DNA from: Bordetella genomosp. 8
GTDB lineage: Bacteria; Pseudomonadota; Gammaproteobacteria; Burkholderiales; Burkholderiaceae_B
Direction of reading: 5' to 3'
Length of the DNA: 64,000 nucleotides
NCBI RefSeq assembly: GCF_002119685.1
Contig: NZ_CP021108.1
Coordinates: forward strand, 4,712,001-4,776,000
Part shown: in pieces, positions 16,984 to 36,742 of the stretch
How positions within the stretch are numbered: position 1 is the stretch's first letter
Layout: every line of letters starts with the position of its first letter
Made by a program: the position numbers and the translations under genes
The notes under the pieces: model-generated
What the model was told of the DNA's origin: nothing
Databases searched by the model: none
Seen by the model: only the letters and a program-made list of their open reading frames with translations

Positions 16984-19089
16984 TCAGAACCCGATTTCCC
17001 GGTGCAGCACCGCCATTGCGCTGCGCAGATAGCGCCAGCTTGGCACGGCCCATTTGCCGAATACCACGACCGTGCCCCGCCAGGCATGCTGGGTCGCGGT
17101 CGCGTCCGTGGAGAGCACTTTCATGCTCACGCGATAGATGGGGCGTTCCGGATAGAACTGGCCGTTCTTTTCCCGCGCCACCACGCTGCCGCCGAACAGG
17201 TTGGACAGCTCCGGCTCGGGCAAGGTCCGGCTAGTATCGCGATCGATGCCAGTGATCTCGATGCGGGCGACGGGCCCCTCGGGCGTGTCGGAGTAGAACT
17301 TCCCGGTATCGCCGACGGCAATCAGGTTCAGCTCATCCTCGTCCAGGTAGGCGATCGCCATCTGCCCCTGATTGGAAACCAGGCGGGCCAGCGGTTCCTG
17401 CCTGGCCATCCACACCCCTGGCCGGGCCTCCGGATTCACATCGGTAAGGACGCCCGCGAAAGGCGCCACCGGCACGTAGCGCGCGGCGTCCGCGTCCACC
17501 GCCGCGACTTCGGCTTCGGCCGCCCCCAGCTGTTCCCGCGATACCTGCAGTTGGCTGCGTTGCTGCTTGTCGAAGGACGCGGCGGAGGTTTGCCAGCGCA
17601 GGCTTTCGATACGGGCCAGGGCGCTTTGCCTGCGCGCGTCGAGATCGGGAGAAGACAGCCGCAGCAGAACCTCGCCAGGCTCCACGCGCTGTCCATCCGC
17701 CACCGGCATGGCCTGGACCCGCGCATGGGTGGGCGCATAGAGCACCAGTTGATCCGAGGGGCGCAGCAACGCGCTGACGGCGACACGGCTGGGCCAGGGC
17801 ATGCACAGCAAGAGCGCGAGCCCCAGCGCGGCCATGGCGCTGTGGCGGGCCCGGCGGCGCGCCCGGATCGCCGGCCAGCGCCTGCGCCAGGCTTGCAGTT
17901 CGCGCAACAGCGGCAACAGCAGGAACCAGCCGATTTCCACGGCGAAAAGCAGGATGCCAACCGCCTTGATGAAGAAGGCATACACCAGGGCCGCGATACC
18001 CAGGAAAATCACCAGCCGATAGATCCAGGTCGCGTAGGCGAAGAGGATCAGGCCGGCCCGGCGGTGGCGGGGGAAATACTCCGGTGGCGGCTCGCCAAGG
18101 GCGAACAACCGTTCGCGCAGATCCCAGCGCGCCAGCGCGAACGCACGGGCATGCAGATTGGGCATTTCCAGCCAGTCCGATAGCAGGAAGTAGCCGTCGA
18201 AGCGCATGAACGGGCTTATGTTGATGGCGATGGTCGCAATCCAGGTGGTGGTGCAGAGCAGGAATGCCAGCGATTTGGCGGTGCCCTCAGGCAGCACTGC
18301 CCAGGCCCAGGTGGCCCAGGCGGCGACGATCAGTTCCGTCGCCACGCCGGCGCCCACCACGGCCAGCCGCTGGCGCCGTCGCGTCAGCCGCCAGACATCG
18401 TTGGTGTCGGTGTAAGCCACCGGCCACATGACGAGAAAAGCCACCCCCATGGCAGGGACCTTGCAGCCCAGTCGCTTGGCGGTCACCGCGTGGCCCAGTT
18501 CGTGCAGCGTTTTGACCGCTGCCAGCGTGACGGCGTAGCTGGCCAGCCCGGACCAGGAGATGGTATCTACGAGCGTGGCGGTGAAACGGTCCCACTGGCG
18601 ATACACCTCGACCCATCCCCAGCCCAAGGCCGCCAGCGTGAGGCAAAGAAATGCGCGCGAATAGAAAAAGGACAGGCGCGGCGCCCATCGGGCCAGCCAG
18701 GCATCCGGCTTGAAGAGCGGTATGCGAAAGAACAGATAGTTATGCAGTAGCCAGGTCCCAAATCCGCCTCGACGCCGGCGCAACTGCCGCGCGTAGTCCG
18801 CGGCGGCGCCGGGTTGGGGCCTGAGCAACTCATTGTCGCGCAGGAAGGCGACGACGTCGGCGACGTCGTCGTGCCCAGCCTGCAAGGTGGTTTCGCGGCT
18901 GACGGCCGCCGCGAGCGCGGAAGGCTCGCCCAAGTGCCAGCGGCTCAGGATCTCGAATGTGGGCCAATCGATCTGGAAGAACCTGTTCCGCACCGGATCG
19001 TGCAGCGTATGGCTGGGCTGGCCGTCGGCCAGCACCGGACCCGGCATCAACGCGAGTTCCTCGCGCAGCAGGGGCAGGAGGTTCTTCAT
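16984..19089 (-). CDS. Membrane M50 (site-2-protease type) metalloprotease fused to a HlyD-like adaptor domain
   Basis: This is a 701-residue polytopic inner-membrane protein. Residues about 15-95 form a small soluble domain whose pattern (LHDPVRNRFFQIDWPTFEIL, then late DVVAFLRDNELL) resembles PqqD/RRE leader-recognition domains; this is an inference. Several transmembrane helices follow. The zinc site HELGH is at residues 196-200, and N290 and D298 in NISPFMRFDGY correspond to the third M50 ligand motif. After the last helices (about residue 435) comes a barrel-sandwich/lipoyl-like domain (VLYAPTHARVQAMPVADGQR), an alpha-helical stretch and a beta-rich tail, as in HlyD adaptors. It is the last gene of the minus-strand locus with the repeat protein and probably processes or exports that protein. 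No ATPase motif is present. Confidence 0.85.
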   Translation of the reverse strand: MKNLLPLLREELALMPGPVLADGQPSHTLHDPVRNRFFQIDWPTFEILSRWHLGEPSALAAAVSRETTLQAGHDDVADVVAFLRDNELLRPQPGAAADYARQLRRRRGGFGTWLLHNYLFFRIPLFKPDAWLARWAPRLSFFYSRAFLCLTLAALGWGWVEVYRQWDRFTATLVDTISWSGLASYAVTLAAVKTLHELGHAVTAKRLGCKVPAMGVAFLVMWPVAYTDTNDVWRLTRRRQRLAVVGAGVATELIVAAWATWAWAVLPEGTAKSLAFLLCTTTWIATIAINISPFMRFDGYFLLSDWLEMPNLHARAFALARWDLRERLFALGEPPPEYFPRHRRAGLILFAYATWIYRLVIFLGIAALVYAFFIKAVGILLFAVEIGWFLLLPLLRELQAWRRRWPAIRARRRARHSAMAALGLALLLCMPWPSRVAVSALLRPSDQLVLYAPTHARVQAMPVADGQRVEPGEVLLRLSSPDLDARRQSALARIESLRWQTSAASFDKQQRSQLQVSREQLGAAEAEVAAVDADAARYVPVAPFAGVLTDVNPEARPGVWMARQEPLARLVSNQGQMAIAYLDEDELNLIAVGDTGKFYSDTPEGPVARIEITGIDRDTSRTLPEPELSNLFGGSVVAREKNGQFYPERPIYRVSMKVLSTDATATQHAWRGTVVVFGKWAVPSWRYLRSAMAVLHREIGF

Positions 19090-19099
19090 GGGGGCCGCC

Positions 19100-20476
19100 T
19101 CATAACCCGACGTGCTGCCGGATGGTGGCCAATGGGCGGCGCAACATCCAATAGACCAGCGGCACCCGGTCGCCGACCAGCTTGGCGGTGCCCTTCAGCC
19201 CCACTCGCTGGCCGGCGGCACCGTCGATGCGGGCCCGCACGCGGTAGGCGTAGCTACCGTCGGGACGAGGCACGGCGTCATGGGCGACGTAGCGCAAGCG
19301 CGCCGACACCGAGTCCAAGGGCGCGGAAGCAAGATAAAGCTCGACCATGGCCTCACTCTTCAGCGGGATCGCATCGCCGATGGGCAGCCACGCCTCGACT
19401 TCCACGTCGTCCGGCGCGGCGATGCGCATGATACGTTCGCCCGTCTGCACAGGCTTGCCTATCCATTCGCTGGGATCGTCGAAGAGCGCGATGCCGTCGC
19501 GCGGCGCGGTCACACGGGACCGCTCGAACTGACCGCGCGCGTAGTCGGCCTCGGCCTGCTTTTCTTCGATCTTGCCGCTCAGGATGGCCAACTGCGCCTT
19601 GGATTTGGAATCGGACAAGGCTTGCTGGGCGTATTGCCGGTATTCAGCCTGCGCCGCGGCCAGCGCCTGCCTGGCGACTTCCAGTCGTGTGGCGATGGGT
19701 GCTTCATCGAAGTTGAACAGCGCCTGGCCAGCCTTCACGAATTGATTGGGCTGGACCTGGAATTGTGCGACCACCCCGTCCACGGGAGCGCGGATAACCG
19801 CAGGATCCGCCGGCACCAGCTCACCCGGCGCGAGCACGGACAAGCGCACCGGACAGCACAGTATCGCCAGCAACAGCGCGGCAACCCAGGTACATCGCTG
19901 TCGCCACCAAGGTTTGCCGGGCTCGCGCTCGACCACGGCTTTGGCGGTAACCCTGGCGCGCTGCCAGGACCACCCCGCGGCGGCGCCCTGCCCGCGCCAG
20001 GCGTGATGCCAGGCGCTGACCCACTCCACCATCAAGGCAATGGCCTCGTCGGACCATGGAACGTCGGCCGCGAGAAACAAGCCGCCGCCCCCACCTTCGC
20101 GGGGGCGCCCACCGAAGGGCAGCCACAAGCCGTACGACGGCAGCCACTCCGTCCATTCGTCGGCCAGGGCGTCCGGCAAATCGGCGGCCGTGACCGGCAT
20201 CGCGGACGCGGACCGGTCATGCAGGACGCGGCAAACCTTCGCCAGCCATTGTGCGTACGGGGCATTGGCTTCGGGCTCCACGACGCCGGACAGCGATTCC
20301 AGGCCCTTATCGGCCAGCCACAGCGCGCCTTGCCGGTACGGCGCCAGGGCATGGGAATCATTGACGATCATGAAGGCGAGCTCGATCGCGCTGTCCGCCG
20401 CGCGAGCGCGGCGGCACAAATCGAGCAGCACCAGCAGGGGATGTGCGACCGAAGGCGCCTGCGCCGCGACGGTCAC
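19100..20476 (-). CDS. HlyD-family membrane adaptor with N-terminal cytosolic (GAF-like) domain
   Basis: This is a 458-residue protein with a large cytosolic head (about residues 1-190, alpha/beta, GAF-like in outline), one transmembrane helix (about residues 200-216) and a periplasmic HlyD-type adaptor. The adaptor shows the lipoyl half motifs VIRAPVDGVVAQFQVQPNQF near residue 235 and SRVTAPRDGIALFDDPSEW, an alpha-hairpin between them, and the beta-barrel ending in a hydrophobic tail. A GTG start was chosen because GGAGG precedes it at about ten bases and no ATG gives the head domain intact. It lies 40 bases after the repeat-protein stop and 10 bases before the M50 gene. HlyD proteins normally have only a short cytosolic tail, so the head domain is unusual and may sense or recruit substrate. 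Confidence 0.82.
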   Translation of the reverse strand: MTVAAQAPSVAHPLLVLLDLCRRARAADSAIELAFMIVNDSHALAPYRQGALWLADKGLESLSGVVEPEANAPYAQWLAKVCRVLHDRSASAMPVTAADLPDALADEWTEWLPSYGLWLPFGGRPREGGGGGLFLAADVPWSDEAIALMVEWVSAWHHAWRGQGAAAGWSWQRARVTAKAVVEREPGKPWWRQRCTWVAALLLAILCCPVRLSVLAPGELVPADPAVIRAPVDGVVAQFQVQPNQFVKAGQALFNFDEAPIATRLEVARQALAAAQAEYRQYAQQALSDSKSKAQLAILSGKIEEKQAEADYARGQFERSRVTAPRDGIALFDDPSEWIGKPVQTGERIMRIAAPDDVEVEAWLPIGDAIPLKSEAMVELYLASAPLDSVSARLRYVAHDAVPRPDGSYAYRVRARIDGAAGQRVGLKGTAKLVGDRVPLVYWMLRRPLATIRQHVGL

Positions 20477-20516
20477 GGCCCTTGCCTCCGAGAGGACGCG
20501 ATCGACGTGGCTAGGG

Positions 20517-23500
20517 TCATGCGCCAGGCCCCTGCAGGGATCTGGCCAGCGCCGCCAGGCGATCGACGACGCCCGTGCCGCCGCGCTGCTGCGCCGCCTG
20601 ATGCAGTTGATCGCTCAAGCCCGCGCGGCCCTCGTGGCCGGACAGCATGGACGCCTGCCGCGCGCCAACCCGGATATGGAACACCGTCTGCGCTTCGTTT
20701 CCCGCCGCATCGCGCGCGATCACGCGGACGGCGATTTCACCCGACATACCACTCGGTGCGTCGACGACGAACTTGCCAGCGCGGCTATCGAAACGCACCC
20801 AGGCCGGCAAGGGCTTGCCGTCCCGCAGTTGGGCGACGAGCTGGATCGCCGCATTGGGATCGGTATGGGCAAAGGCATCGGGCGGAATGCTGACTTCGAC
20901 GCGGCTGGCTGGCGCCACGATCAGGTCGCCCATGCCGCGGTTCAACATCAGGCCCTGGTTTTCCGCCGAGGACGGCATTACGACCACCTGGAAACTGCTG
21001 CCGTGGGTAAGGGCTGACCTGTCCGGACGGCCCAGGTCTCTCAGGCCGTCGCTCGGGTAGGCGATACCCGTGCCCGCAAGCGACGGCATGACCGCGCTCA
21101 AATCGCCGGCCAGCCCCTCGGCCAGCAGGGACGATTGCAGGCGCGGCGGCAGGAACTCGATTGCGGGCTCCTGCAGCGTGATGACACCCGACAACGGCCG
21201 ATCCGCCGCGCGATCGCGGTCGAATGGCAAGGGCGCCGTGACGGAAAATATAGGCGGTAGCGGCCGCGGCAGCGGCGGCGGGAGCGCCTGTTCCGGTGTG
21301 GCGGGCGGTGTGGCGGGCGGTGGGGAGTCCGGTGGCTGAGGCGGCTGGGGTGGCTGAGGCGACGCTGCCAGGCTCAGTACGCCGCTCGCGCTGCTGGCAT
21401 TGCCCGCGACGTCGGTCACCGTGGCCGTCACGCCGTAGCTGGCGCCAGCCTCCAGCGTAATGCTGCCACTGGCCGGCGTGGCCGACGCCAGATCCAGGCT
21501 CCAGCGTCCGCCGACCGGCACGACGCGATATACGGCGTCGCCTACGCGCACCGTCAGCGATTCCCCGGCACCCAAGGCGGCATCGCCGACCAGGACCGGC
21601 GCCCCGCCGGCGCCCTGCACCGAAACCACAGTGGGCGTGGCAGGCGGCGTAGCGTCGACCTCGTACGCCTGTCCGTGGACCGGCCCGGTATTGCCGGCGG
21701 CATCGACGACCCGTAATTGCAGCGTTCCGCTGGCCGCCAACGTGACGCCATCCCAGGCCAGCGTCGTACCGGTTATCTTGCCGGTGATGTCGATCCAGGT
21801 CGCGCCGCCATCCAGGGACCCGTAGGCACGATCGCCGCTGTCCAGCGGGTGGCTCAGCGTGGCCCTGATGGTCTGGCCGGCCACGGCGGTGATGAAATCG
21901 CCTTGGGATGCGCCGGTATCGGCGGACAGCGCCAGGTCGGCGAACGCAGCCGACGGCGCCGTCGTATCGATCACGATGGCCTTGTTCGCGCCCAGGGAGC
22001 CTGCGCCGCCTGGCGCAGCCAGGTCCAGGCTCGCGTCCTGCATTCCGGCCGACTGCCGTATCGCGCCGCCGTTCAACAACAGCGCTCCGATGGCGGCATA
22101 GTCCAGATCGGCGGTATCCTGCCCCGCGCCGATGATGTAGGTAAAGACGAGCGTGGTGCTGCCCGAACCGCTGGTGTAGCGGGCGGTTCCGCCGTTGTTC
22201 AACGACAGCGTGGGCGTGCCGCCTGCCGTATCCACCGTGACTGCCCTACTGAAGGTTACCGTGACGGCCACCGTATCGCCCGCCTTGTACAGGCCATCGG
22301 GCGTCGTGGCCGCGACATCGGTAACGACTGTCCGCGTGCCATCCACATTGATCGCCGCCGTGCTGCCGACGTTGTTCAGCGTGAGCGTGGCATCGTTGCC
22401 GGCGAGGTCCGCGAGCGCACCGCCGTTGGCGTTCAGTCCGCCTATCGTGACGCCGTCGGCATCGTGGTCGGCATTCGTCACCGTATAGCGGAAGACCAGG
22501 TCGCTGGTGCCCGATCCAGATTGGTAAGTCGCATACACGGTGGTAGTGCCGATGGCCAGCGCGATACGCGGCGTGCCGCCCGTCGTATCCACCGTCACCG
22601 CTTCGGAGAAGTGAACCGTGAAATCGAGATTCTGGCCAGCGTAGTAGGTGCCGTTCGCCGGCACGGTGACCGTGCCGACCTCGGGCGCCGAGGTATCGAG
22701 CACGTAGGCGTGTGCAAAGACCGCGCCGCTATTGCCCGCGGCGTCCACGACGCGAACCTGCAGCGTACCGCTCGCGGCCAATGCGCCCAAGCAAGACCAG
22801 GTGTTAGCGCCTGCGGTGGCCGCGGCGACGATCCAGCTGTTGCCGCCGTCCAGCGACACCTCCACGCTTTCGCCGCTGCCCAGATTGGCGCTCAGCGTGC
22901 CGGAGATGGCTTGCACGGCGGTATTGGTGATGAAGTCGCCGGCGATACCGGAGTCCACCGAGAAGGCGGCCGTCGCGACCGTCGTGGTGGGCGCAGTGGT
23001 ATCGATGGTCACGAGCAAGCCGGAGGAGGCGCCGCTGACGTTGCCGGCGGCGTCGGTGGCCTTGGCGGTGATCGTGTGCGAGCCGTCGGTCAAGGGCACG
23101 GAGGTGATCGACCACACGCCGCCGGCCACCGCCACCGAACCCAGCACGCTGCCGTCTCCGTCGTACAGCGTCACCGTCGACCCGTTCTCTCCCGTACCTG
23201 TGAAAACAGGCGTGTCGTTGCTGGTGATGTTGTCCGAATGGGACGTACCGCTATCGCTGCCACTCGTCATGACGGGCTGCGAAGGGACATCCGGGGCCAG
23301 CGTATCGAAGCTGAGCGCGGGCAAAAGCGCTCCCGCGCCGCTGTTACCGGCGACGTCGATATAGCTGGACGCGGTCACGCTGATGCTGGCGCTGCCCGCG
23401 TCCACGTTAGGCGTAGGGGTGAAGGTCGCCGTGCGCGTCGTTCCGGACCCGGAGAGCGGTCCCAGCGTGCCGCCGCTGACCACGATATCAGCCGACGTAA

Positions 23501-26500
23501 AGGTGGTGCCCGGGTCTTCGCTGAAGGTGAAGGTGATGGTCGCGGTCTCGCCCATCTTCAACGTCGCCACGTCGCTCGAAATGGTCAGCGCGGGCGCGGT
23601 GGTGTCGATGGTAACGTCCAGGCCTGCCGAGGCGGCGCTGACGTTGCCGGCGGGATCCGTGGCCTTGGCCGTCAGGGTGTGCGCGCCCGCGCTCAGCGCC
23701 AAGCTGGTAATCGACCAGTTGCCGGCCGTCGCGACGACCGATCCGAGCACGGTCGTGCCGTCGGTGTCGTAGAGCGTCACGGTGGAACCGGTCTCCGCCG
23801 TGCCGGTGAACGTAGGCGTCGTGTCCGAAGTGATGTTGTCCGAGTTTGACGTGCCGGCATCCGTGGCGCTGGTCATGTTCGGCGCCGAAGGGGCGGCCGG
23901 CGCGGTGTGATCCAGCGCATAGGTTTCGCCGGCGTTGTACCCCCCTTGGATAGCGATCCCGCCAGCATTCTCGATGCCGGTGCTCGCGCCGTTCAGATCC
24001 AGGCGCAGCATGCCGTCGCCGCCGAGCATATCCACTACGACGGTATAGGTGGAACCGCCACCGGAGACGGACGCGATCCGGCCCGAGGCGGTGCCGGTCG
24101 GGGTAAGCGTGAAGTCGCTCGCATCGACGCCCGTCACGGCTTCGCTGAATGTCACCGTATAGCTGACCGACGTGGCGGACGCGCCGACCTGCACGGACGC
24201 GCCGCCCGCACGCCCAATGGCGCTGACCGTTGGGATATCCGACACCGTGAACGTAAAGGCGCGGTAGCTGACATTGCCGGCGGTATCGGAGGCGGCGACG
24301 TAGATGTGGTACGAACCCATGCTGAGCGAAGCGCCACCGACCCGCAGCGCGTTGCCGACGATGGCGAAACTGCCGTTGTTCGCATCGTTGGTACCGTTAC
24401 CCGCCGCCAGGCTGTAGCTGACCGCCAGCCCATCGGTGGACGACAATGTCGCGATCGACGATCCGGCGCTCGCGCTCACGCTCGTCACGGTCGTTGTGCT
24501 CAGGTCCAATCCGGTCGGCGCGGTGGTGTCGACGGTGAACGTCAGTCCCGGTGAGGCGCTCGCGGCATTGCCGGCGAGATCCGTCACCACGGCGGTGACG
24601 ACATGGCTGCCCTCGGCCAGCGCGGGGGCCGTGAAGGACCATGTGCCACCGGCCGCCGTCGTGCTGCCGAGCAGCGTCGCGCCGTCATACAGCTCGACGG
24701 TGGTGCCGCTTTCCGCTGTCCCGGTGAATGTAGGCGTCGTATCCGACGTGATGTTGTCGGTGGCGGACGCTCCTGAATCGGTGCCGGCCGTCATATCGGG
24801 CGTCGAAGACGGCGCGGGGGCTGTCGTATCCAGCACGTAGGCTTGGGCGTAGACCGTACCGTCGTTGCCCGCCGCATCCGTGACCTTGAGCAGCAGCGTG
24901 TTGCTGCCGCTCAGTACCGCGCCGGTCCAGGTCAGCGAAGTGCCGGACACATGGGAGGTGAGATTGACCCAGCTCTGCCCGTTATCGAGCGATCCGTAAA
25001 CGACATCGCCCGGATTCGGGGCGCTACTCAATGTCGCCGTGATGGTCTGGGAAGCGACGTTGGTGACGAAGTCGGTGGCGCTGTCGCCCGTATCGGCGGA
25101 CAGGGAAGCATTGGACACCGCGCTGGTCGGCTTGACGTTGTCCACCGTGGCATTGCTGGTGTCCGACGTCGTGGTGGTATTGCCCGCGTTGTCGGTGACC
25201 TTGACGGAGACATTGCGATTGGCGACGCCGTCCAGCGCGCCGGCAACGATGGTATACGTGGCAGTCCAGACGCCGCCGGAGTTGGTGGCCGCCACCGCGG
25301 CGCCGCCGCCGAACTGGCTGAAATCGAACGTGACGCCGCTGAGGGTATCGACGTTGTTATCGCCTGCCGCCGTGTTGTTCCAGGTCGCCGTGACCGTGTC
25401 GCCGATGCGATAGGCGCCGCCGATCCCGGTGCCGCCGGTGATGCCGACGTTGCCGTCGGTCACGGTGGGTGCAACGTTGTCGATGGTGAGATTGCTCGTA
25501 TCGGCCGCGGTTGTGATGTTGCCCGCGTTGTCCGTGACGGTGACCGTAACGTTGCGCGCGACGGCGTCAACCGCGCCGCTGGCGATGGTGTAGCTGGCGC
25601 TCCATATACCGCCTGTGTTGACGCCGACCACCGATGCGCCGCCGCCGAACTGGCTGAAATCGAATCTGACGCTGCCAAGGCTGTCGGAGTTGCTGTCGCC
25701 ACCGGCGGTGTTGTCCCAAATGGCCGTGATGGTGTCGCCGATGCGATAAGTCCCACCGGGGCCGCTGCCGGCGCTGGTGATGCCGATCCGCGCATCGGTC
25801 ACTATCGGGGCGACGATGTCCACGGACAAGTTGGTGGTATCGCCGGTGAAAGCAGTACCGGCATCGTTGAACGCGCTGACCCGGACATTGCGGTTGGTGG
25901 CGTCCACGGAGCCGGCCACGAGCGTATAGCTGGCCGTCCAGATCCCGCCGGAATTGGTGGCCGCGACAGTGGAGGGTCCGCCGAATTGCGAGAAGTCCAT
26001 CGTCACGCCGTTCAACTCGGCATTGTTGTCGCCGGTCGCGGTGTTATCCCAGACCGCGGTGACGGTGTCGCCGATCCGATAGGCGCCGCCCACTCCGGAA
26101 CCGGTCGAAGTGATGGAGATATTCGCGTCGGTGGCCACCGGAAAAGCCGGTATGGCCTTGACGTTCAAGATATCGAAATTCTGGAACAGGCCGAAATCGC
26201 TCGAGCTCAATACCACTTGGGTAACGTGGTTCAGCGGCGAGCTGAAGCTCGACAGCGTCTGCCAGGCGTTGACCAGCGAATTGATCGTAAAGTTGGCCGT
26301 GGAGCCGTTGGCGTACCGGACTTGCATCGCCAGGCTGCCCGACGCGACGCCGACCTGGAAAGACCCGACATCGAACTCATAACCGGCCTGGATCGAGATG
26401 GTCAGCTTGATATCGTTACCGCCGCCCGTACCTTCGTAGGCATACAAGCCGTCGCTGCCGTAGGAGAGATCATCTATTCCCATGCCACCAAAGCCGGTGC

Positions 26501-27344
26501 CGCCCGTGAAGCTGACCGTTGCGCCGCCCAGCTGTTTCTGTATCAACATGGAACTATAGTCGGCGTCGGAATCGGTGAAGGTAACGACCGTCAGCAGGCC
26601 ATGGTAGTCGGCGATTTGCAGGGCGCGCGCGTCGATCTGCCCGGTATGCGCCTCCAGCGACCAGTCGCCGCCCCTGTCCGCCGCTCCCGTCGCGTCCGTC
26701 GACGCCGCCACATCGGCGCCGGTAAGCCGCGCCATATCGTCGATCAGGCGCTGCCCATCGCTGCCGGACGCGATATCGCAGCCGTAGAGCAGCAGGTCGC
26801 CGCCGGCATTGAGCGCGCGGCCGATCTCGGCGAGTTCGGCCTGCACCGTGGACGAGGACAGCGAGGCATCGGTCAGCACATCGGTACCCAGGTTCAGCTT
26901 GCCTTCCGACCCGTGCGACAGGATATGGATGGCGTCGTAGCCGCCATGACTCCGCGCCCAGCCGGCGATCTGTGCCAACCCCTCCTTGTTGCCGTCGAAT
27001 TCGACGATGGCCACGCCCGCGCGTACGCCGGCCTCCAGCGTCCGGTAATCGGCGACCGATGTGTCGACGAAGACGACCTCCTTCCTGCCATTGTTGCGGC
27101 TGGCGTCGGCCTCGCGCACCTGGTGCGCGGCGGCCGCGGCCTCGGCCGCCTGCGCCGCGGCATGGGCATCCGGTTTCGCCTGCGTGTCATGCGCGGCCGT
27201 CGCCGCCGCCGCCCCATCGAACATGAAGCGGGGCTCCAGCGACAGCACCCGGGAGGCCCGACGCAGGTTCTGCCGCGGGGCGGCGCCAGCCTGCGACGCA
27301 CGCGACTGGTGGATCAGGCGAAAGGGCAGGAAAAGGTCATTCAT
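20517..27344 (-). CDS. Giant LEPR-motif/DUF4347 surface or secreted protein with Ig-like repeats
   Basis: This is a 2275-residue protein. A basic N-terminal stretch leads to LEPRFMFDGAAAAT (residues 37-50), a motif found at the N-terminus of many giant exported proteins. DUF4347 follows (about 88-250) with H144 in LSHGSEG and C189 in LLYGCDIASG, spaced like a clan CD cysteine-protease dyad. A beta-rich domain (about 255-400) precedes tandem Ig-like modules to about residue 1985, including three modules of about 111 residues sharing YRIGDTVTA, DFSQFGG and NSGG motifs. A Pro-rich linker (about 1990-2030) and a C-terminal part with a putative-Ig segment near 2160-2235 complete it. No RTX nonapeptides or C-terminal T1SS-type Asp-box are visible. 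The gene lies between the two adaptor genes, so it is the likely cargo, probably an adhesin. Confidence 0.9.
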   Translation of the reverse strand: MNDLFLPFRLIHQSRASQAGAAPRQNLRRASRVLSLEPRFMFDGAAAATAAHDTQAKPDAHAAAQAAEAAAAAHQVREADASRNNGRKEVVFVDTSVADYRTLEAGVRAGVAIVEFDGNKEGLAQIAGWARSHGGYDAIHILSHGSEGKLNLGTDVLTDASLSSSTVQAELAEIGRALNAGGDLLLYGCDIASGSDGQRLIDDMARLTGADVAASTDATGAADRGGDWSLEAHTGQIDARALQIADYHGLLTVVTFTDSDADYSSMLIQKQLGGATVSFTGGTGFGGMGIDDLSYGSDGLYAYEGTGGGNDIKLTISIQAGYEFDVGSFQVGVASGSLAMQVRYANGSTANFTINSLVNAWQTLSSFSSPLNHVTQVVLSSSDFGLFQNFDILNVKAIPAFPVATDANISITSTGSGVGGAYRIGDTVTAVWDNTATGDNNAELNGVTMDFSQFGGPSTVAATNSGGIWTASYTLVAGSVDATNRNVRVSAFNDAGTAFTGDTTNLSVDIVAPIVTDARIGITSAGSGPGGTYRIGDTITAIWDNTAGGDSNSDSLGSVRFDFSQFGGGASVVGVNTGGIWSASYTIASGAVDAVARNVTVTVTDNAGNITTAADTSNLTIDNVAPTVTDGNVGITGGTGIGGAYRIGDTVTATWNNTAAGDNNVDTLSGVTFDFSQFGGGAAVAATNSGGVWTATYTIVAGALDGVANRNVSVKVTDNAGNTTTTSDTSNATVDNVKPTSAVSNASLSADTGDSATDFVTNVASQTITATLSSAPNPGDVVYGSLDNGQSWVNLTSHVSGTSLTWTGAVLSGSNTLLLKVTDAAGNDGTVYAQAYVLDTTAPAPSSTPDMTAGTDSGASATDNITSDTTPTFTGTAESGTTVELYDGATLLGSTTAAGGTWSFTAPALAEGSHVVTAVVTDLAGNAASASPGLTFTVDTTAPTGLDLSTTTVTSVSASAGSSIATLSSTDGLAVSYSLAAGNGTNDANNGSFAIVGNALRVGGASLSMGSYHIYVAASDTAGNVSYRAFTFTVSDIPTVSAIGRAGGASVQVGASATSVSYTVTFSEAVTGVDASDFTLTPTGTASGRIASVSGGGSTYTVVVDMLGGDGMLRLDLNGASTGIENAGGIAIQGGYNAGETYALDHTAPAAPSAPNMTSATDAGTSNSDNITSDTTPTFTGTAETGSTVTLYDTDGTTVLGSVVATAGNWSITSLALSAGAHTLTAKATDPAGNVSAASAGLDVTIDTTAPALTISSDVATLKMGETATITFTFSEDPGTTFTSADIVVSGGTLGPLSGSGTTRTATFTPTPNVDAGSASISVTASSYIDVAGNSGAGALLPALSFDTLAPDVPSQPVMTSGSDSGTSHSDNITSNDTPVFTGTGENGSTVTLYDGDGSVLGSVAVAGGVWSITSVPLTDGSHTITAKATDAAGNVSGASSGLLVTIDTTAPTTTVATAAFSVDSGIAGDFITNTAVQAISGTLSANLGSGESVEVSLDGGNSWIVAAATAGANTWSCLGALAASGTLQVRVVDAAGNSGAVFAHAYVLDTSAPEVGTVTVPANGTYYAGQNLDFTVHFSEAVTVDTTGGTPRIALAIGTTTVYATYQSGSGTSDLVFRYTVTNADHDADGVTIGGLNANGGALADLAGNDATLTLNNVGSTAAINVDGTRTVVTDVAATTPDGLYKAGDTVAVTVTFSRAVTVDTAGGTPTLSLNNGGTARYTSGSGSTTLVFTYIIGAGQDTADLDYAAIGALLLNGGAIRQSAGMQDASLDLAAPGGAGSLGANKAIVIDTTAPSAAFADLALSADTGASQGDFITAVAGQTIRATLSHPLDSGDRAYGSLDGGATWIDITGKITGTTLAWDGVTLAASGTLQLRVVDAAGNTGPVHGQAYEVDATPPATPTVVSVQGAGGAPVLVGDAALGAGESLTVRVGDAVYRVVPVGGRWSLDLASATPASGSITLEAGASYGVTATVTDVAGNASSASGVLSLAASPQPPQPPQPPDSPPPATPPATPEQALPPPLPRPLPPIFSVTAPLPFDRDRAADRPLSGVITLQEPAIEFLPPRLQSSLLAEGLAGDLSAVMPSLAGTGIAYPSDGLRDLGRPDRSALTHGSSFQVVVMPSSAENQGLMLNRGMGDLIVAPASRVEVSIPPDAFAHTDPNAAIQLVAQLRDGKPLPAWVRFDSRAGKFVVDAPSGMSGEIAVRVIARDAAGNEAQTVFHIRVGARQASMLSGHEGRAGLSDQLHQAAQQRGGTGVVDRLAALARSLQGPGA
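25281..26150. repeat. Three tandem Ig-like module repeats inside the giant gene
   Basis: The segment encoding YRIGDTVTA recurs at about 25405, 25741 and 26074, that is every 336 and 333 bases (112 and 111 codons). Flanking DFSQFGG and NAGNxTT-type segments repeat in register. Similarity at DNA level is high enough to be seen by eye, implying recent duplication or gene conversion. Later modules in the gene are much more diverged. Confidence 0.85.
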
Positions 27345-27350
27345 GATGGG

Positions 27351-28148
27351 TCAGGATCCGCTGGGAGGTGCCATCAGCACCTTGCCGCTCATGCCGGCCA
27401 TGAGCTCGCTGAAACCGCCGTCGATGACCGCGGTCAGTTTGATGGATTGGCTTACCGGGTCCACCCGGGCGCCGATGCGCTGCACCTTGGCCGGATAGGT
27501 CTTGCCTGTTTCGTCGATCGCCACCTCAAAGCGCTGGTCGGGCTTGAGCCAGACCAACCATTTGCTCGGCACGATGAAGTCCAGTTCGAGCGCGGAATCG
27601 TCGAGTATTTCCAGCATGGGCTGGCCGGGCTGCACGTACTGCTGGGGCCGCACCCGCTGTTCCGCGACACGGCCGTCGAAGGGCGCGACGATGCGGCACT
27701 TGTCCAGCACGATGTCCGCCAACGAGACCTCGGCGCGCGCCTTGCCGGCTTCCGCCTCCGAAATCTCCAGCTCGACCTTGCCCACCGAATTGAGTTGCGC
27801 AAGGCGCTTGTTCGCGGCGTACGTATGTTCGGCGGCCGCCAGCGCCGCCCGGGCCTTGCGGGACTGCGCCTGCTGCAAGGCGCAGTCCAGCGACACCAGC
27901 GTCTGGCCCGCCTTGAAACGGCCGCCTTCCGGCACGTCGATACGGTTGATCTTGGCGCCTATTTCGGCGGAGACAGTGGTGTAGCGGCGTGGCACCAGCT
28001 CCGCGCGGATGTCTTGCCTTTCTATTGCCGTGGACGGCGCCGCGGGCGGCATTGTCTGGGCCGCCGCGCTGCCCGCCCCCAGCAGAAAGGCGGTCAGCAG
28101 CACCGCCCGCGAGTGGCGCGCGCGGCGGCGGAAATTCGTTCGGCGCAT
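27351..28148 (-). CDS. Periplasmic adaptor protein (membrane fusion protein, RND/HlyD type)
   Basis: This is a 265-residue exported adaptor. A signal peptide of about 30 residues (RAVLLTAFLLGAGSAAAQ) precedes a short MFP core: a lipoyl half (INRIDVPEGGRFKAGQTLVS), a coiled-coil hairpin (QAQSRKARAALAAAEHTYAA) and the second half (CRIVAPFDGRVAEQRVRPQQ), then a beta-barrel. It is shorter than typical adaptors, lacking the membrane-proximal domain. It sits six bases from the giant gene and 12 bases from the TolC-like gene, so it probably links that outer-membrane channel to the inner-membrane parts encoded downstream. Confidence 0.85.
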   Translation of the reverse strand: MRRTNFRRRARHSRAVLLTAFLLGAGSAAAQTMPPAAPSTAIERQDIRAELVPRRYTTVSAEIGAKINRIDVPEGGRFKAGQTLVSLDCALQQAQSRKARAALAAAEHTYAANKRLAQLNSVGKVELEISEAEAGKARAEVSLADIVLDKCRIVAPFDGRVAEQRVRPQQYVQPGQPMLEILDDSALELDFIVPSKWLVWLKPDQRFEVAIDETGKTYPAKVQRIGARVDPVSQSIKLTAVIDGGFSELMAGMSGKVLMAPPSGS

Positions 28149-28160
28149 GCCATGTCTCCG

Positions 28161-29696
28161 TCAGTGCGCGGCGGCGGAAGCCGTCCAGGTGCCCGCCGCG
28201 GACACCTGTTTCGTCAGCGCCTCCAGCGACAGATCACCGACGCTGCCGATCGTGGGCTCCATGCCCAGTGTCGATTGCAGCCTGCCGCTGGCGCTCTGCA
28301 ACTGCGACAAGGACTGATAGCGGCGCAACAGGCTGACGATGGCGACGGTGTCGTTGGAAACCTGTTCCAGCTTGCTTTGCGCCTGTGCGGCGGCGCGGTT
28401 CTTCACATACTCCGCGATCTGTGCATCCGCCCGCCAGATCTCATCGGCGCGCGTGTACTGCTGCAGCGCCGACTCGTACTGCAGGCGCGACAGGTAAACC
28501 TTGGCCAGCACCGCCATCTGCGTGGCGATGCGCCGTTGGTCGGCCAGCTTCACGCCCGCATCCGCCAGCTTCTTTTGCGAGGGCGCGGATAGCAGATTGA
28601 AAACATTCCAGGACAATTGCAGACCGGTCTCGTTCCAGGTCTTGTTGATCAGATAGCTGTCGGTATCGTGCCGCACGCCGTAGTTGAAGGAAAGGTTCGG
28701 GAACAGCTTCAACAGGGTGCGCCAGGTTTCCTCGGCTGCGATGCGGCTGGCGTAGTGCTGCTCGCGAATGTCGGCATTCTGGCTCAGGGCCAGTTCCTCC
28801 ATGCGCTTGACCGGCATGTCGCGCAGAGCGCTATCGATAGGCTCGCGCGGCTCCAGCACGCGGAAGTCCTGATCGAATGGTGCGTTGATAAGCTGCGCAA
28901 GCTCGATATGGCCGGCGTCCAGCTCCATCTGGATGCTTTCCAGCAGATTGAGGTTTTCCAGCAACTGGCGTTGATAGCGCAATGCATCGATCGGCGATCT
29001 CAGGCGTTCGGCCTCGGCTTTTTGCGCATCCTGCAGCGCCTGTTCGGCGACGGCGATGGCCTGCCCCACCCGGTCGTGCAGCATCTGCGCGCTGACCGTG
29101 CGCCAAAAGGCGACCTGGACGTCCTGCACCAGTACGTGCATGGCCTTGCGGCGGCGCTCCGCGGCGATCAGCACGCGGTCCGCCTGCTGTTTGGCCTCGA
29201 TGTAGCCAAGACCAAAGTCGAGCAGGTTCCACGTCAGGCCCAGATCGTAGGTCTTGTGCGTGCGGGCACTGGAGATGTAGGGATGGCTCAGCGACGGTTC
29301 GCCCGTGACCGAATCGACGCTGCGGGTGATCAGGTCATTATTGCGGTGGCTGTAGCCGGCCTGGGCCATCAGCTTGGGCAACATGTCCCAGCTCGCGGCG
29401 TCCAACTGGTCCAGCGCGAGCGCCTCTTCCATCATCTTGACGCGACGGTCCAGGTTGTACTTCAAGGCGCGCGCGATGGCCTCGTCCAGGGATAGCGGCC
29501 CCTTGATGGACTCCACGTCCTGGCTCGCGGCAGCCTTGTCGGCGGCCGTGCCGCGCGCCAACTCATCCGCCGTCAATGGGTGCAAGGCCACCGTGCCGCA
29601 ACCGGCCAGTGCCAGCGCAGCGGCAAGGAAGACAAGGTGCCGAAGCGACGAAAACGGACGGCGCGGGTGAGGGGTCGTTATCTGGGTGGGGTCCAT
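28161..29696 (-). CDS. TolC-family outer-membrane channel lipoprotein
   Basis: This is a 511-residue outer-membrane efflux protein. A lipobox LALAGC near residue 34 ends the signal peptide, so the mature N-terminus is a lipidated cysteine, as in OprM-type channels. Two OEP repeats follow, each starting with the usual LSLDEAIARALKYNLDRR-like segment, with long alpha-hairpins. The first repeat carries LGLTWNLLDFGLGYIEAKQQ and the second LQLSWNVFNLLSAPSQKKLA. The ATG at 29696 was chosen; an in-frame GTG five codons upstream is possible, and neither has a good ribosome binding site. It is the first gene of the locus and would form the exit channel for the giant protein. Confidence 0.92.
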   Translation of the reverse strand: MDPTQITTPHPRRPFSSLRHLVFLAAALALAGCGTVALHPLTADELARGTAADKAAASQDVESIKGPLSLDEAIARALKYNLDRRVKMMEEALALDQLDAASWDMLPKLMAQAGYSHRNNDLITRSVDSVTGEPSLSHPYISSARTHKTYDLGLTWNLLDFGLGYIEAKQQADRVLIAAERRRKAMHVLVQDVQVAFWRTVSAQMLHDRVGQAIAVAEQALQDAQKAEAERLRSPIDALRYQRQLLENLNLLESIQMELDAGHIELAQLINAPFDQDFRVLEPREPIDSALRDMPVKRMEELALSQNADIREQHYASRIAAEETWRTLLKLFPNLSFNYGVRHDTDSYLINKTWNETGLQLSWNVFNLLSAPSQKKLADAGVKLADQRRIATQMAVLAKVYLSRLQYESALQQYTRADEIWRADAQIAEYVKNRAAAQAQSKLEQVSNDTVAIVSLLRRYQSLSQLQSASGRLQSTLGMEPTIGSVGDLSLEALTKQVSAAGTWTASAAAH

Positions 29697-29953: not shown

Positions 29954-31225
29954 ATGCCGGACTCCACGACTGCCTACCCTCCCCTCGACCCCGCCGGCAA
30001 AGGCCTGGGCGCCTTCCCCGCCGGCTGTACGCCGGCCCAGGCGGCGGGCCTGGGCTGGAACCTGCTGGCCGAGGATGTCAGCCTGCCCGCCGCCGTCCTG
30101 TACGAATCGCGCGTCCGCCACAACCTGGCGTGGATGCAGGAGTTCATGCGCGCCTATCAGGTCCAGCTGGCGCCCCACGGCAAGACGACGATGAGCCCCG
30201 CCCTGTTCCATCGGCAGCTGGAAGGCGGCGCCTGGGGGATCACGCTGGCGACGGCGCCGCAGGTGAATGCCGCCTACCGCTATGGCGTGCGCCGCATCCT
30301 GATGGCCAACCAGCTGGTGGGCCGCGCCAATATGGCATTGATCGCGGAACTGCTGCGCGACCCGGGTTTCGAATTCTGCTGCCTGGTCGATGACCCGGCC
30401 AATATCGCGCAACTGGGCAAGTACTTCGCCGAGCAGGGGCGCGTACTGCGGGTGCTGGTCGAATTGGGCGTGCCGGGCGGGCGTACCGGCGTGCGCGACG
30501 ACGCGGCGTTGCAGCGCGTGACCGACGAAATCGCGCGCTGGCCCCAGTCGCTGGCGCTGGCGGGCATCGAGATCTACGAAGGCGTGCTGTCCGACGAAGG
30601 CAAGATACGCGACTTCCTGCGCCGCGCGGCCGATACGCTGCGCGCCCTGCAGGCCGCGGGCAAGCTGGCGCCCCAGGGCGCGGCCATCCTGACCGGCGCG
30701 GGTTCGGCCTGGTTCGACGTGGTGGCGCAGGAATTCTCCGGCCTGGATATCGGCCGCGCGCTGGACATCGTGCTGCGGCCTGGCTGCTATCTGAGCCACG
30801 ACGTCGGGATCTATCGCGGCGCGGCCGAACGGATCGGCCGGGAAAACGACGTGGCACGCGGCATGGCGCCGGGCTTGATGCCCGCCTTGCAAGTCTGGGC
30901 CTATGTGCAATCGCTGCCCGAACCGGGCCGCGCGATCATCGGCATGGGCAAGCGCGACGCGGCCTTCGATGCCGGCCTGCCGGTACCGGCGCGCCATTAC
31001 CGGCCCGGCGCCCAGGCGCCGGCCGCCGCCACGGCGGGATGGGAAGTCACCGCGATGATGGACCAGCACGCCTTCATGCGCATCGCCGACGGCGACGACA
31101 TCCAGGTGGGCGACATGATCGGCTTTGATATTTCGCACCCCTGCCTGACTTTCGACAAATGGAAGCAGGTGCTGCTGGTGGACGACGACTACCGGGTCGT
31201 CGATATCGCGCAGACATTCTTCTGA
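29954..31225 (+). CDS. PLP-dependent D-serine dehydratase/D-threonine aldolase-type enzyme
   Basis: This is a 423-residue fold-type III PLP enzyme (alanine-racemase-like N-terminal barrel plus DSD/DTA C-terminal domain). The PLP lysine is K77 in APHGKTT. The C-terminal metal site reads DISHPCLTFDKW, giving H395 and C397, a His-x-Cys pair. Eukaryotic-type D-serine dehydratase uses His and Cys for zinc, whereas D-threonine aldolase uses His and Asp, so a dehydratase or deaminase activity on D-serine-like substrates is favoured; this is an inference. The ATG lies 41 bases after a perfect inverted repeat. It heads an operon with an Opp-type importer, a D-aminoacylase and RidA, and would convert released D-amino acids into keto acids. 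Confidence 0.87.
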   Translation: MPDSTTAYPPLDPAGKGLGAFPAGCTPAQAAGLGWNLLAEDVSLPAAVLYESRVRHNLAWMQEFMRAYQVQLAPHGKTTMSPALFHRQLEGGAWGITLATAPQVNAAYRYGVRRILMANQLVGRANMALIAELLRDPGFEFCCLVDDPANIAQLGKYFAEQGRVLRVLVELGVPGGRTGVRDDAALQRVTDEIARWPQSLALAGIEIYEGVLSDEGKIRDFLRRAADTLRALQAAGKLAPQGAAILTGAGSAWFDVVAQEFSGLDIGRALDIVLRPGCYLSHDVGIYRGAAERIGRENDVARGMAPGLMPALQVWAYVQSLPEPGRAIIGMGKRDAAFDAGLPVPARHYRPGAQAPAAATAGWEVTAMMDQHAFMRIADGDDIQVGDMIGFDISHPCLTFDKWKQVLLVDDDYRVVDIAQTFF

Positions 31226-34709: not shown

Positions 34710-35717
34710 ATGACGGCAAGCACACGCGACGTCGTTCTTTCGGTGGAAGGACTCAAAACCTGGTTTCACAGCCGCGACGGTATCGCCAAATCGGTGGACG
34801 GCGTGACCTTCGACCTGGCGCGCGGCGAGACGTTGGCCATCGTCGGCGAATCCGGATCGGGCAAATCGGTGACCAGCCTGTCCATCATGGGCCTGCTGCC
34901 CAAGCCGGCCGGGCGCATCGAAGCGGGCCACATCCGCTTCCGCGACCGCGCCGGCACGGAGCACGACCTGGCGACGGCATCGGCGGCGCGCATGCAGGAT
35001 ATCCGCGGCAAGGAGATCGCCATGATCTTCCAGGAGCCGATGACCAGCCTGAACCCGCTGTACACGGTGGGCGACCAGATCGCCGAAGCGGTGCTGCAGC
35101 ATGAAGGCGGCTCGCGCGCCGCGGCCCTGCGGCGCGCCCGCGAAATGCTGGAACGCGTGGAAATCCCCGCCGCCGAGCGGCGTATCGGCGAATATCCGCA
35201 CCAGATGTCGGGCGGCATGCGGCAGCGCGTGATGATCGCGCTGGCGCTGGCCTGCAACCCATCGGTGCTGATCGCCGACGAGCCCACCACGGCGCTGGAC
35301 GTGACGGTGCAGGCGCAGATACTGGACCTGCTGCGGCGCCTGCAGGAAGAACTGGGCATGAGCATCCTGTTCATCACGCACAACCTTGGCGTGGTCGCCG
35401 AGATCGCCCATCGCGTCGCGGTGATGTACGCCGGCCGGGTGGTGGAAGACGCCGACGTCTACGACCTGTTCGAGCGGCCCAGCCATCCCTATACGCGCGG
35501 GCTGCTGTCCTGCATACCCACCGACGCGCTGCTGGCCAGCGGCGAACGCCTGCGCGCGATTCCCGGCAACGTGCCCAGCGTGCTCGCCCTGCCCCCCGGC
35601 TGTACCTATGCGCCGCGCTGCGAGCTGGCCAGCGAGGCCTGCACGCGCGCGGTGCCCGACCTGACCGATGTGCGCGGCGGCCACCGCGCGCGCTGCATCA
35701 AAGTGACTCCCGCATGA
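34710..35717 (+). CDS. ABC transporter ATP-binding protein (OppD/DppD type)
   Basis: This is a 335-residue ATPase subunit that energises the importer on the cytosolic face. It has Walker A GESGSGKS near residue 49, the Q-loop [10 protein letters not shown] near residue 110, the signature MSGGMRQRV near residue 168, and Walker [12 protein letters not shown] near residue 187. The C-terminal oligopeptide-transporter domain carries [14 protein letters not shown], the cysteine-rich segment of OppD/OppF proteins. Start and stop are tightly packed with neighbours: the stop overlaps the next ATG in ATGA. Confidence 0.96.
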
Positions 35718-36742
35718 TGGACGCCATGACCGACGCCCCGCCCCTGGCCGCCGCCGGCAATGCCGCGCCGGCGCTCGATGCCGGCCCCCTGCTCAGCGTG
35801 CAGGACCTGCGCGTGCATTTCCCGACCTCGTCGCGCCGCGGCGCGCCTGTCGTCAAGGCGGTCGACGGCGTCAGCTTCGACGTGCGGCGCAATTCCATCG
35901 TCGGCCTGGTCGGCGAATCCGGCTCCGGCAAGACGACGACCGGCCGCGCGCTGCTGCGCCTGGTGCCCGCCACCGGCGGCAAGGTGCTGTTCGACGGCGC
36001 CGACCTGAGCCGCCTGGACGAAGCCGCCATGCTGCCCTGGCGTCGCCGCATGCAGATAGTCTTCCAGGATCCGTACGCCAGCCTGAACCCGCGCATGACC
36101 GTGGCGGAGATCCTGGGCGAAGCCCTGGACACCCACAGGCTGGCGCGCGACCGCCGCCATGAACGCATCGCCGAACTGCTCACGCGCGTCGGCCTGAACG
36201 CCGACCACGCCCGCCGCTATCCGCATGAGTTTTCCGGCGGCCAGCGCCAACGCATAGGCATCGCCCGCGCCCTGGCGGTCGAACCCGACTTCATCGTCGC
36301 CGACGAACCGGTGTCGGCCCTGGACGTTTCCGTCCAGGCCCAGGTGCTGAACCTGCTGCAGGACCTGCAGCGCGATCTGGGCCTGGCCATGCTGTTCGTC
36401 GCCCACGACCTGGCGGTGGTGAACTACCTGTGCGACGAAGTGGTGGTAATGTACCTGGGCCGGGTCATGGAAAGCGGTCCCACGCGGCGCGTCTATGCCG
36501 CCCCGCGGCACCCGTATACTCGCGCCCTGCTGTCCGCCGCCCCGGTGCCCGACCCACGCGCGCCCCGCAATCGCATCCTGCTGAAGGGAGACATCCCCAG
36601 CCCCATGGATCCGCCTTCGGGCTGCGTCTTCCGCACGCGCTGCCCGCACGCCATCGATGCCTGTGCGCAGACCGTGCCGGCGCCGCAATCCGTCGGCGAA
36701 GGCCAGCTGGTGGCATGCCTGCGGGCGGCCGAACTGGCTTGA
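35714..36742 (+). CDS. ABC transporter ATP-binding protein (OppF/DppF type)
   Basis: This is a 342-residue ATPase, the second nucleotide-binding subunit of the importer. It contains Walker [14 protein letters not shown] near residue 74, Q-loop [12 protein letters not shown] near residue 117, signature [15 protein letters not shown] near residue 175, and Walker [12 protein letters not shown]. The C-terminal Cys motif [14 protein letters not shown] completes the OppF-type tail. The ATG overlaps the preceding stop in ATGATG; the second ATG is also possible, as is a later one at residue 5. Confidence 0.96.

What the first reader, a model, noticed from the sequence alone, without database searches (positions are those of the whole stretch)
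16984..29696. Five-gene export locus for a giant protein that lacks an ABC ATPase and has a membrane M50 protease instead
Seen: five tightly packed minus-strand genes encode a TolC-like lipoprotein, a small periplasmic adaptor, a 2275-residue repeat protein, a HlyD-type adaptor with a cytosolic head, and an M50 metalloprotease fused to an adaptor-like domain. No gene in the locus has Walker motifs. Known: type I secretion of such proteins needs an ABC transporter with TolC and one HlyD adaptor. Inference: this is either a distinct export machine in which the M50 protein is the inner-membrane component, or it borrows an ATPase or the Sec pathway. The energy source and the order of cleavage and export are open questions.
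Basis: partly seen in the sequence, partly recalled or inferred. Interest (0 to 1): 0.85.

Follow-up and report, generated by a model that had tools for sequence, protein, structure and literature searches.

The report
Giant-protein exporter without ABC pump
Five neighbouring bacterial genes look like an undescribed export machine for giant surface proteins that lacks the usual ABC pump, seems to read a short tag at the protein's start, and has a sister version carrying its own SecA-type motor.

Summary
The five genes are real and form a tight operon. The set is conserved: of 80 relatives, 78 have the GAF-type adaptor beside M50 (two are cut by contig ends), 70 a recognised giant, and one a same-strand ABC gene directly behind M50. 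The M50 protein fuses three parts: a leader-binding RRE/PqqD-like domain (fold of lasso-peptide protein B1), an RseP-like site-2 protease core, and a MacA-like adaptor. The giants share an N-terminal motif LE-x-R-x-[ML]-F-D-[GA]-A, related to the unexplained LEPR-XLL domain. In 323 genomes the motif's DNA pattern occurs in 8, all 8 with an M50 match; 52 genomes have one (Fisher 3e-7). A sister M50 clade neighbours LEPR giants, and 13 of 20 sister loci carry a shortened SecA-like ATPase beside M50. Reading: ABC-independent export in which the RRE binds the LEPR leader, the protease trims it, adaptors and OMF form the conduit, and SecA (dedicated in the sister, probably housekeeping here) gives energy. 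Conservation, domains, motif linkage and the sister's SecA are shown; leader binding, cleavage, transport and SecA use in the window type are inferred. Ten searches of one open-access library found no description.

The parts
16984..19089 (-). M50 fusion protein, 701 aa: RRE/PqqD-like domain + site-2 protease + MacA-like periplasmic adaptor
   Evidence: PF02163 37.5 bits (cut-off 27.2) and PF13437 36.4 (22.2); AlphaFold model pLDDT 86.7; VIA-align matches
18817..19080 (-). RRE/PqqD-like leader-binding domain, residues 4-91
18166..18561 (-). site-2 protease core, residues 177-308, with HELGH (196-200) and PFMRFDGY
17041..17793 (-). periplasmic adaptor (MacA-like), residues 433-683
19100..20476 (-). 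GAF-type adaptor, 458 aa: cytosolic GAF domain (residues 9-168), one hydrophobic segment near 194-221, MacA/MexA-like periplasmic part
20517..27344 (-). giant substrate protein, 2275 aa: leader, DUF4347, Ig-like repeats, conserved C-terminal region
   Evidence: PF14252 174 bits; Big_13, Big_12, Big_6 repeats
27210..27239 (-). LEPR-type leader motif LEPRFMFDGA, residues 36-45 of the giant
   Evidence: NF012209 14.5 bits, below its cut-off 17; motif in 24 of 26 family giants with own start
26598..27077 (-). DUF4347 domain, residues 90-249
   Evidence: PF14252
20595..20630 (-). C-terminal motif GRAGLSDQLHQA, residues 2239-2250
   Evidence: strict pattern in 55 of 78 family C-termini, near-matches visible in most of the rest
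27351..28148 (-). small periplasmic adaptor, 265 aa, signal-peptide-like start
   Evidence: PF13437 81.1 bits; TIGR01730 127.1 bits over cut-off 94.9; hydropathy
28161..29696 (-). TolC-like outer-membrane factor, 511 aa, probable lipoprotein
   Evidence: PF02321 108.2 bits; LAGC after a hydrophobic stretch

Best explanation
The locus encodes an ABC-independent export system for giant surface proteins, directed by an N-terminal LEPR-type leader. Proposed steps: (1) the unfolded giant is presented by its N-terminal LE-x-R-x-[ML]-F-D-[GA]-A leader to the RRE/PqqD-like domain on the cytosolic face of the M50 protein; (2) the leader is cut by the site-2 protease core of the same protein; (3) the M50 adaptor domain, the GAF-type adaptor and the small adaptor form a ring that joins the inner membrane to the TolC-like factor; (4) the chain is driven across by a SecA-type ATPase, a dedicated shortened SecA in the sister clade and probably the housekeeping SecA in the window's clade; (5) the conserved C-terminal motif may stop or hold the chain. 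Shown: the operon, its conservation, the domains, the motif linkage and the SecA-like genes of the sister clade. Inferred: leader binding, cleavage, transport itself, and SecA use by the window type.
For: Conserved set without ABC gene. RRE, RseP-like and MacA-like parts in one protein, with PqqD confirmed by Pfam in one sister and profile similarity of window and sister N-termini. N-terminal motif in 24 of 26 giants with own start, also in the E. coli plasmid giant as LESRQLFDGA. Motif DNA pattern in 8 of 323 genomes, 0 for the reversed control pattern in the listed rows, all 8 in the 52 genomes with an M50 match (Fisher 2.8e-7; 1.7e-6 without the centre genome); 6 of 8 sites lie on the M50 contig, 0.2-37 kb away. 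Sister loci: SecA-like gene beside M50 in 13 of 20 that I chose and fetched, Pfam SecA_DEAD, PP_bind and P-loop domains in 6 of 6 tested, Walker A GEGKT in 6 of 6; LE-x-R-x-L-type motif in 7 of 8 DUF4347 ORFs by regex and MEPRVLFSD in the eighth, NF012209 over cut-off in L127. In 50 window-type genomes all 12 extra SecA sites lie within about 2 kb of the 12 sister-type M50 genes.
Against: No experiment. 41 of 50 window-type genomes have a single SecA match, so SecA use there rests on analogy. 7 of 20 sister loci have no SecA-like gene beside M50. 12 of 34 genomes with two or more SecA_DEAD matches have no M50 match. The SecA-like proteins lack the region beyond about residue 602 of B. subtilis SecA, so their way of engaging SecY is unclear. 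The window's leader scores below the NF012209 cut-off. A published Vibrio giant combines LEPR-XLL with RTX domains (PMC10868602, passage), so the motif may not be exclusive to this machine. The RRE fold match is one row among 50 listed. The motif was seen in only 7 of 13 sample genomes with a full-length close M50.
Confidence: 0.55

Rival explanations
1. Type I secretion with the ABC transporter in trans: the locus supplies adaptors and OMF, and an ABC exporter encoded elsewhere drives the giant; M50 only trims it.
For: A type I ABC family is over cut-off in 42 of 50 genomes (LssB 29 of 50; of the other 21, 13 have HlyB or PrtD). In L011/G005 an LssB/HlyB-like ABC gene directly follows M50. 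The giants carry adhesin-type repeats usual for type I substrates.
Against: 8 of 50 genomes have none over cut-off; 5 of them (Variovorax sp. N23, an Acidovorax MAG, two Polynucleobacter, Alteromonas lipolytica) have only hits that lack the N-terminal 130 or so positions, as generic ABC exporters do. These are drafts or MAGs, and only the best-ranked candidates per genome were scored. Same-strand ABC adjacency in 1 of 80 loci (L006 has an opposite-strand ABC-like ORF 183 bases away).
Confidence: 0.2
2. Not an exporter but a processing or release device: the giant leaves by another route, and the M50 complex cleaves or retains it.
For: The M50 active site is intact, and S2P-RRE relatives named in NCBIfam are peptide-maturation proteases (daptide 143.7 bits, epipeptide 28.8, both below cut-off).
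Against: The operon also holds three adaptor modules and a TolC-like factor, which make a conduit; the giant has no hydrophobic signal peptide (best 12-residue window 1.1 against 2.2 and 2.6 for the small adaptor and OMF).
Confidence: 0.13
3. The M50 membrane protein is itself the inner-membrane channel and works without any ATPase, on the proton gradient or on folding outside.
For: 41 of 50 genomes lack an extra SecA, and some lack a type I ABC.
Against: Its membrane core matches a protease, not a pump; the sister clade has an ATPase in the operon.
Confidence: 0.12

Closest known systems
Type I secretion system (HlyB-HlyD-TolC; LapB-LapC-LapE for giant adhesins)
   Same: inner-membrane adaptor, TolC-like factor, repeat-rich giant substrate without signal peptide, genes side by side
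   Different: no ABC transporter in the locus; three adaptor modules instead of one; an N-terminal leader motif; no RTX repeat family among the window giant's Pfam hits
MacAB-TolC and RND tripartite pumps
   Different: no MacB or RND pump in the locus; adaptors fused to GAF or RRE-S2P
RiPP leader-processing M50 proteases with PqqD/RRE domains (daptide MpaP, YydH/LiaK)
   Same: RRE-like domain followed by an M50 membrane protease; daptide model aligns to residues 60-384
   Different: below the family cut-offs; fused to a periplasmic adaptor; the partner is a giant protein, not a small peptide
LEPR-XLL domain NF012209
   Same: the N-terminal motif is its top hit in 8 of 8 N-termini tested and over cut-off in L088 and L127
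   Different: the window type reads MFDGA where the canonical form reads LLSA; the domain had no function or machine assigned in the records seen
SecA and accessory SecA2
   Same: sister-clade ATPase has both motor domains and the preprotein cross-linking domain
   Different: about 650-680 aa, ends near residue 602 of B. subtilis SecA, below every NCBIfam SecA and SecA2 cut-off, sits in an M50-adaptor operon

Membership tests
Type I secretion system | ABC transporter with the adaptor and OMF | tested here: not met
   none of the five genes; same-strand ABC next to M50 in 1 of 80 loci; 8 of 50 genomes have no LssB, HlyB or PrtD over cut-off
Type I secretion system | HlyD-type adaptor | tested here: met
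   PF13437 in three of the five proteins
Type I secretion system | TolC-like outer-membrane factor | tested here: met
   PF02321 108.2 bits
Type I secretion system | C-terminal secretion signal sufficient for export | not testable with these tools
   a conserved C-terminal motif exists (55 of 78 by strict pattern); its role is unknown
Site-2 protease (M50) | HExxH plus DG motif in a conserved membrane core | tested here: met
RRE/PqqD-like domain | winged-helix fold of leader-binding RREs | tested here: met
RRE/PqqD-like domain | Pfam PF05402 over cut-off | tested here: not met
   no hit in the window protein; over cut-off in 1 of 6 sister proteins, L138
RRE/PqqD-like domain | binds the partner's leader peptide | not testable with these tools
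   needs binding assay or complex model
LEPR-XLL domain NF012209 | score over 17 bits | tested here: not met
   window 14.5 bits; family members L088 22.2 and L127 24.4 pass
SecA (sister-clade ATPase) | DEAD motor, preprotein cross-linking and second motor domains, Walker A | tested here: met
   6 of 6 proteins
SecA (sister-clade ATPase) | helical wing, two-helix finger and C-terminal linker | tested here: not met
Accessory Sec SecA2 | NCBIfam SecA2 cut-offs | tested here: not met
   best TIGR04397 554 of 1085, TIGR03714 509 of 930
Daptide metalloprotease NF041824 | score over 300 bits | tested here: not met
   143.7 bits; sister 163.7

The most novel reading that the evidence does not exclude
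A protein secretion type of its own: RiPP-like leader recognition (RRE) plus intramembrane trimming (site-2 protease) coupled to a SecA-type motor and a three-adaptor TolC conduit, which exports LEPR-leader giants across both membranes without an ABC transporter. LEPR-XLL would be its export leader. In the sister clade the shortened SecA, without a two-helix finger, would work on the M50 complex rather than on SecY.
Probability: 0.35. Interest if true: 0.95.

Novelty: categorically new. Interest (0 to 1): 0.86.

Why it matters
It would give the LEPR-XLL motif a cognate machine, explain how many of the largest bacterial proteins reach the cell surface, and show an export route that joins the leader logic of small modified peptides to SecA-type energy and a TolC conduit. 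It offers clear targets for test: one glutamate, one ten-residue leader and one small ATPase. Close copies of the M50 gene occur in 24 of 5,426 complete E. coli genomes, mostly on plasmids, so the system also lies near well-studied hosts.

Tried and rejected
Downstream rarA/mgsA as the motor: an AAA+ gene, but M50 neighbours differ in most of the other loci, so I rejected it as part of the set. The oligopeptide importer at 34710-36739: an importer, outside the set. Walker A match in the small adaptor: chance, exported protein. Natural fusion of the GAF adaptor and M50: long ORFs in L011, L046, L094, L095 looked like fusions, but separate GAF-adaptor ORFs overlap them; rejected. DUF4347 as the constant part of the substrate: 12 of 50 genomes have no match; the N-terminal motif and C-terminal region are more constant. 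A SecA paralogue of the window type elsewhere in the genome: 41 of 50 genomes have one SecA match only; G045's single match is partial. Foldseek of both models listed adaptors only in the top 50; the RRE, RseP and GAF matches came from VIA-align. Literature: 10 searches found no description; the library is open-access PMC only, so absence is weak.

Rows left out of counts: fragments G033:C113, G046:C90:1-1455, G046:C24, G046:C72, G010:C8, G033:C16 and G040:C111:61492, giants with identical last 200 residues were counted once. The split into close (E below 1e-170, 13 genomes) and other matches is mine and crude; fragments at contig ends (for example G156, G186, G340, G217) may belong to either. 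The Fisher value 1.1e-12 used such a split and is not relied on. The two N-termini without the motif are L049 (a distant opposite-strand ORF next to masked letters) and L087 (start probably misread). The OMF and small adaptor were both within reach in 19 of 80 first loci because flanks were 10 kb (its adaptor count is inflated by cross-matches).
Full report
What is there. Five minus-strand genes, 16984-29696, are intact and lie 6 to 40 bases apart. They encode a TolC-like factor (PF02321), a small periplasmic adaptor, a 2275-residue protein with DUF4347 and Ig-like repeats, an adaptor with a cytosolic head, and an M50 protein with an adaptor domain. No ABC signature occurs in any of them. The M50 protein is identical to one in a 6.17 Mb contig, and its nearest named relatives are Herbaspirillum and other betaproteobacteria; no whole genome is held for the window.

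Conservation. The GAF-type adaptor sits directly upstream of M50 in 78 of 80; L036 and L056 are cut by contig ends. A giant recognised by its N- or C-terminal profile is in 70 of 80; most of the ten others are cut short by the contig, L071 is not. Two orders recur: OMF-adaptor-giant-GAF adaptor-M50 (betaproteobacteria and many gammaproteobacteria) and giant-OMF-adaptor-GAF adaptor-M50 (alphaproteobacteria, enterobacterial plasmids). An ABC-type ORF on the same strand right behind M50 occurs in L011 only; L006 has an opposite-strand one 183 bases away; three more lie 4 to 6 kb off (the pattern is a simple regex).

Is an ABC transporter supplied in trans? Of 50 genomes with the locus, 29 have the LssB family over cut-off. 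Of the other 21, three have HlyB and eleven PrtD over cut-off, 13 together. Eight have none. Three of these have strong hits just below a cut-off (G006, G045, G046). Five (G013, G027, G043, G044, G048) have only hits that begin near position 130, as generic exporters do. So the locus is found without a recognisable type I ABC gene, but drafts and MAGs limit the claim, and most genomes do have one.

The substrate's tags. Family giants with their own start carry LE-x-R-x-[ML]-[FYL]-D-[GAS] near the N-terminus in 24 of 26 cases, about 15 to 75 residues in, after a basic stretch. NCBIfam LEPR-XLL is the top hit in 8 of 8 N-termini, over its cut-off in one; the window's scores 14.5 against 17. The E. 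coli plasmid giant reads LESRQLFDGA. A DNA pattern for the motif was found in 8 of 323 genomes of the class; the reversed control pattern gave none in the rows shown. In the same 323 genomes 52 have an M50 match, and all 8 motif genomes are among them (Fisher 2.8e-7; 1.7e-6 without G002, the centre, which was found through M50). Seven of the eight have a full-length close M50, of 13 such genomes; the eighth, G156, has a 92-residue fragment at a contig end. Six of the eight motif sites lie on the M50 contig, 0.2 to 37 kb away. At the C-terminus a motif like GRAGLSEQLR is met by a strict pattern in 55 of 78.

The sister clade and the motor. Weaker M50 matches form a separate clade (window clade 100/100). 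I fetched 20 of these loci. Thirteen have, directly next to M50 and often overlapping it, a gene of 646 to 726 codons with SecA homology; six of six tested carry the SecA DEAD, preprotein cross-linking and P-loop domains and Walker A GEGKT. One of them aligned to B. subtilis SecA over residues 33 to 602, that is without the wing, two-helix finger and C-terminal linker (boundaries recalled), and the two scanned score below every NCBIfam SecA cut-off. Seven sister loci lack it; two of these genomes (G323, G120) have a second SecA match elsewhere. The sister giants carry LE-x-R-x-L-[LFY]-S-A: seven of eight DUF4347 ORFs by regex, MEPRVLFSD in the eighth, with LEPR-XLL over cut-off in L127 but not listed for L141. 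In the 50 window-type genomes, nine have extra SecA matches, and all 12 such sites lie beside the 12 sister-type M50 genes. In the 323-genome sample, 22 of 34 genomes with two or more SecA matches have an M50 match (Fisher 6e-12), 12 do not; some of these doubles may be split hits.

Mechanism. The most economical reading is that the RRE domain binds the LEPR leader, the fused protease trims it, the three adaptor modules connect to the OMF, and a SecA-type ATPase pushes the chain. In the window's clade no dedicated SecA is seen, so I infer use of the housekeeping SecA, at lower confidence than the rest. The GAF domain suggests control by a small ligand (inference). Nothing here shows transport or cleavage directly.

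Known or new. The parts are known kinds; the combination matches no described system that I could find in 10 searches. LEPR-XLL appears in two papers of the library; in one I read the passage, a Vibrio giant of about 8000 residues with LEPR-XLL and C-terminal RTX domains (PMC10868602), which warns that the motif may also occur with type I substrates. DUF4347 appears in four papers; in one I read the passage, a DUF4347 protein that rises in stationary-phase Burkholderia thailandensis (PMC12322963). The system fails the defining feature of type I secretion while resembling it in layout.

Noticed in passing
L011/L106 (G005:C9:327600-329618): The only locus of 80 with an LssB/HlyB-like ABC gene on the same strand right behind M50; it could be a hybrid or a chance neighbour.
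   Followed up: partly
L081, L144 (NZ_CP104683.1): E. coli and Citrobacter plasmids carry a complete version with a 4457-residue giant; 24 of 5,426 complete E. coli genomes hold a close copy of the M50 gene, 21 places on plasmids and 4 on chromosomes.
   Followed up: partly
window 26598-27077: DUF4347 has a conserved SHG and a GC pair (pattern in 31 and 34 of 36 family domains) that recalls a caspase-like His-Cys dyad; the first pattern can also hit chance places, and the likeness is recalled, not tested.
   Followed up: no
G031:C2 and G047:C2 (Limnohabitans): DUF4347 open frames of 17,576 and 16,083 residues about 50 kb from the M50 gene, among the largest bacterial reading frames I saw here.
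   Followed up: no
L119: Two consecutive smaller giants, 1462 and 1042 residues, each with the leader motif and the C-terminal region, before one exporter.
   Followed up: no
G064, G087, G132, G147, G185, G198, G214, G219, G226, G305, G327, G364: Two or more SecA_DEAD matches without an M50 match; split hits or other extra SecA proteins.
   Followed up: no
G090:C1:2262362: Housekeeping SecA reported inside an open frame of 24,580 residues, probably an effect of masked letters.
   Followed up: no
window 29954-31222: Divergent neighbour: D-serine dehydratase/alanine-racemase-like protein; downstream of the locus lie rarA/mgsA and a seryl-tRNA synthetase gene.
   Followed up: no
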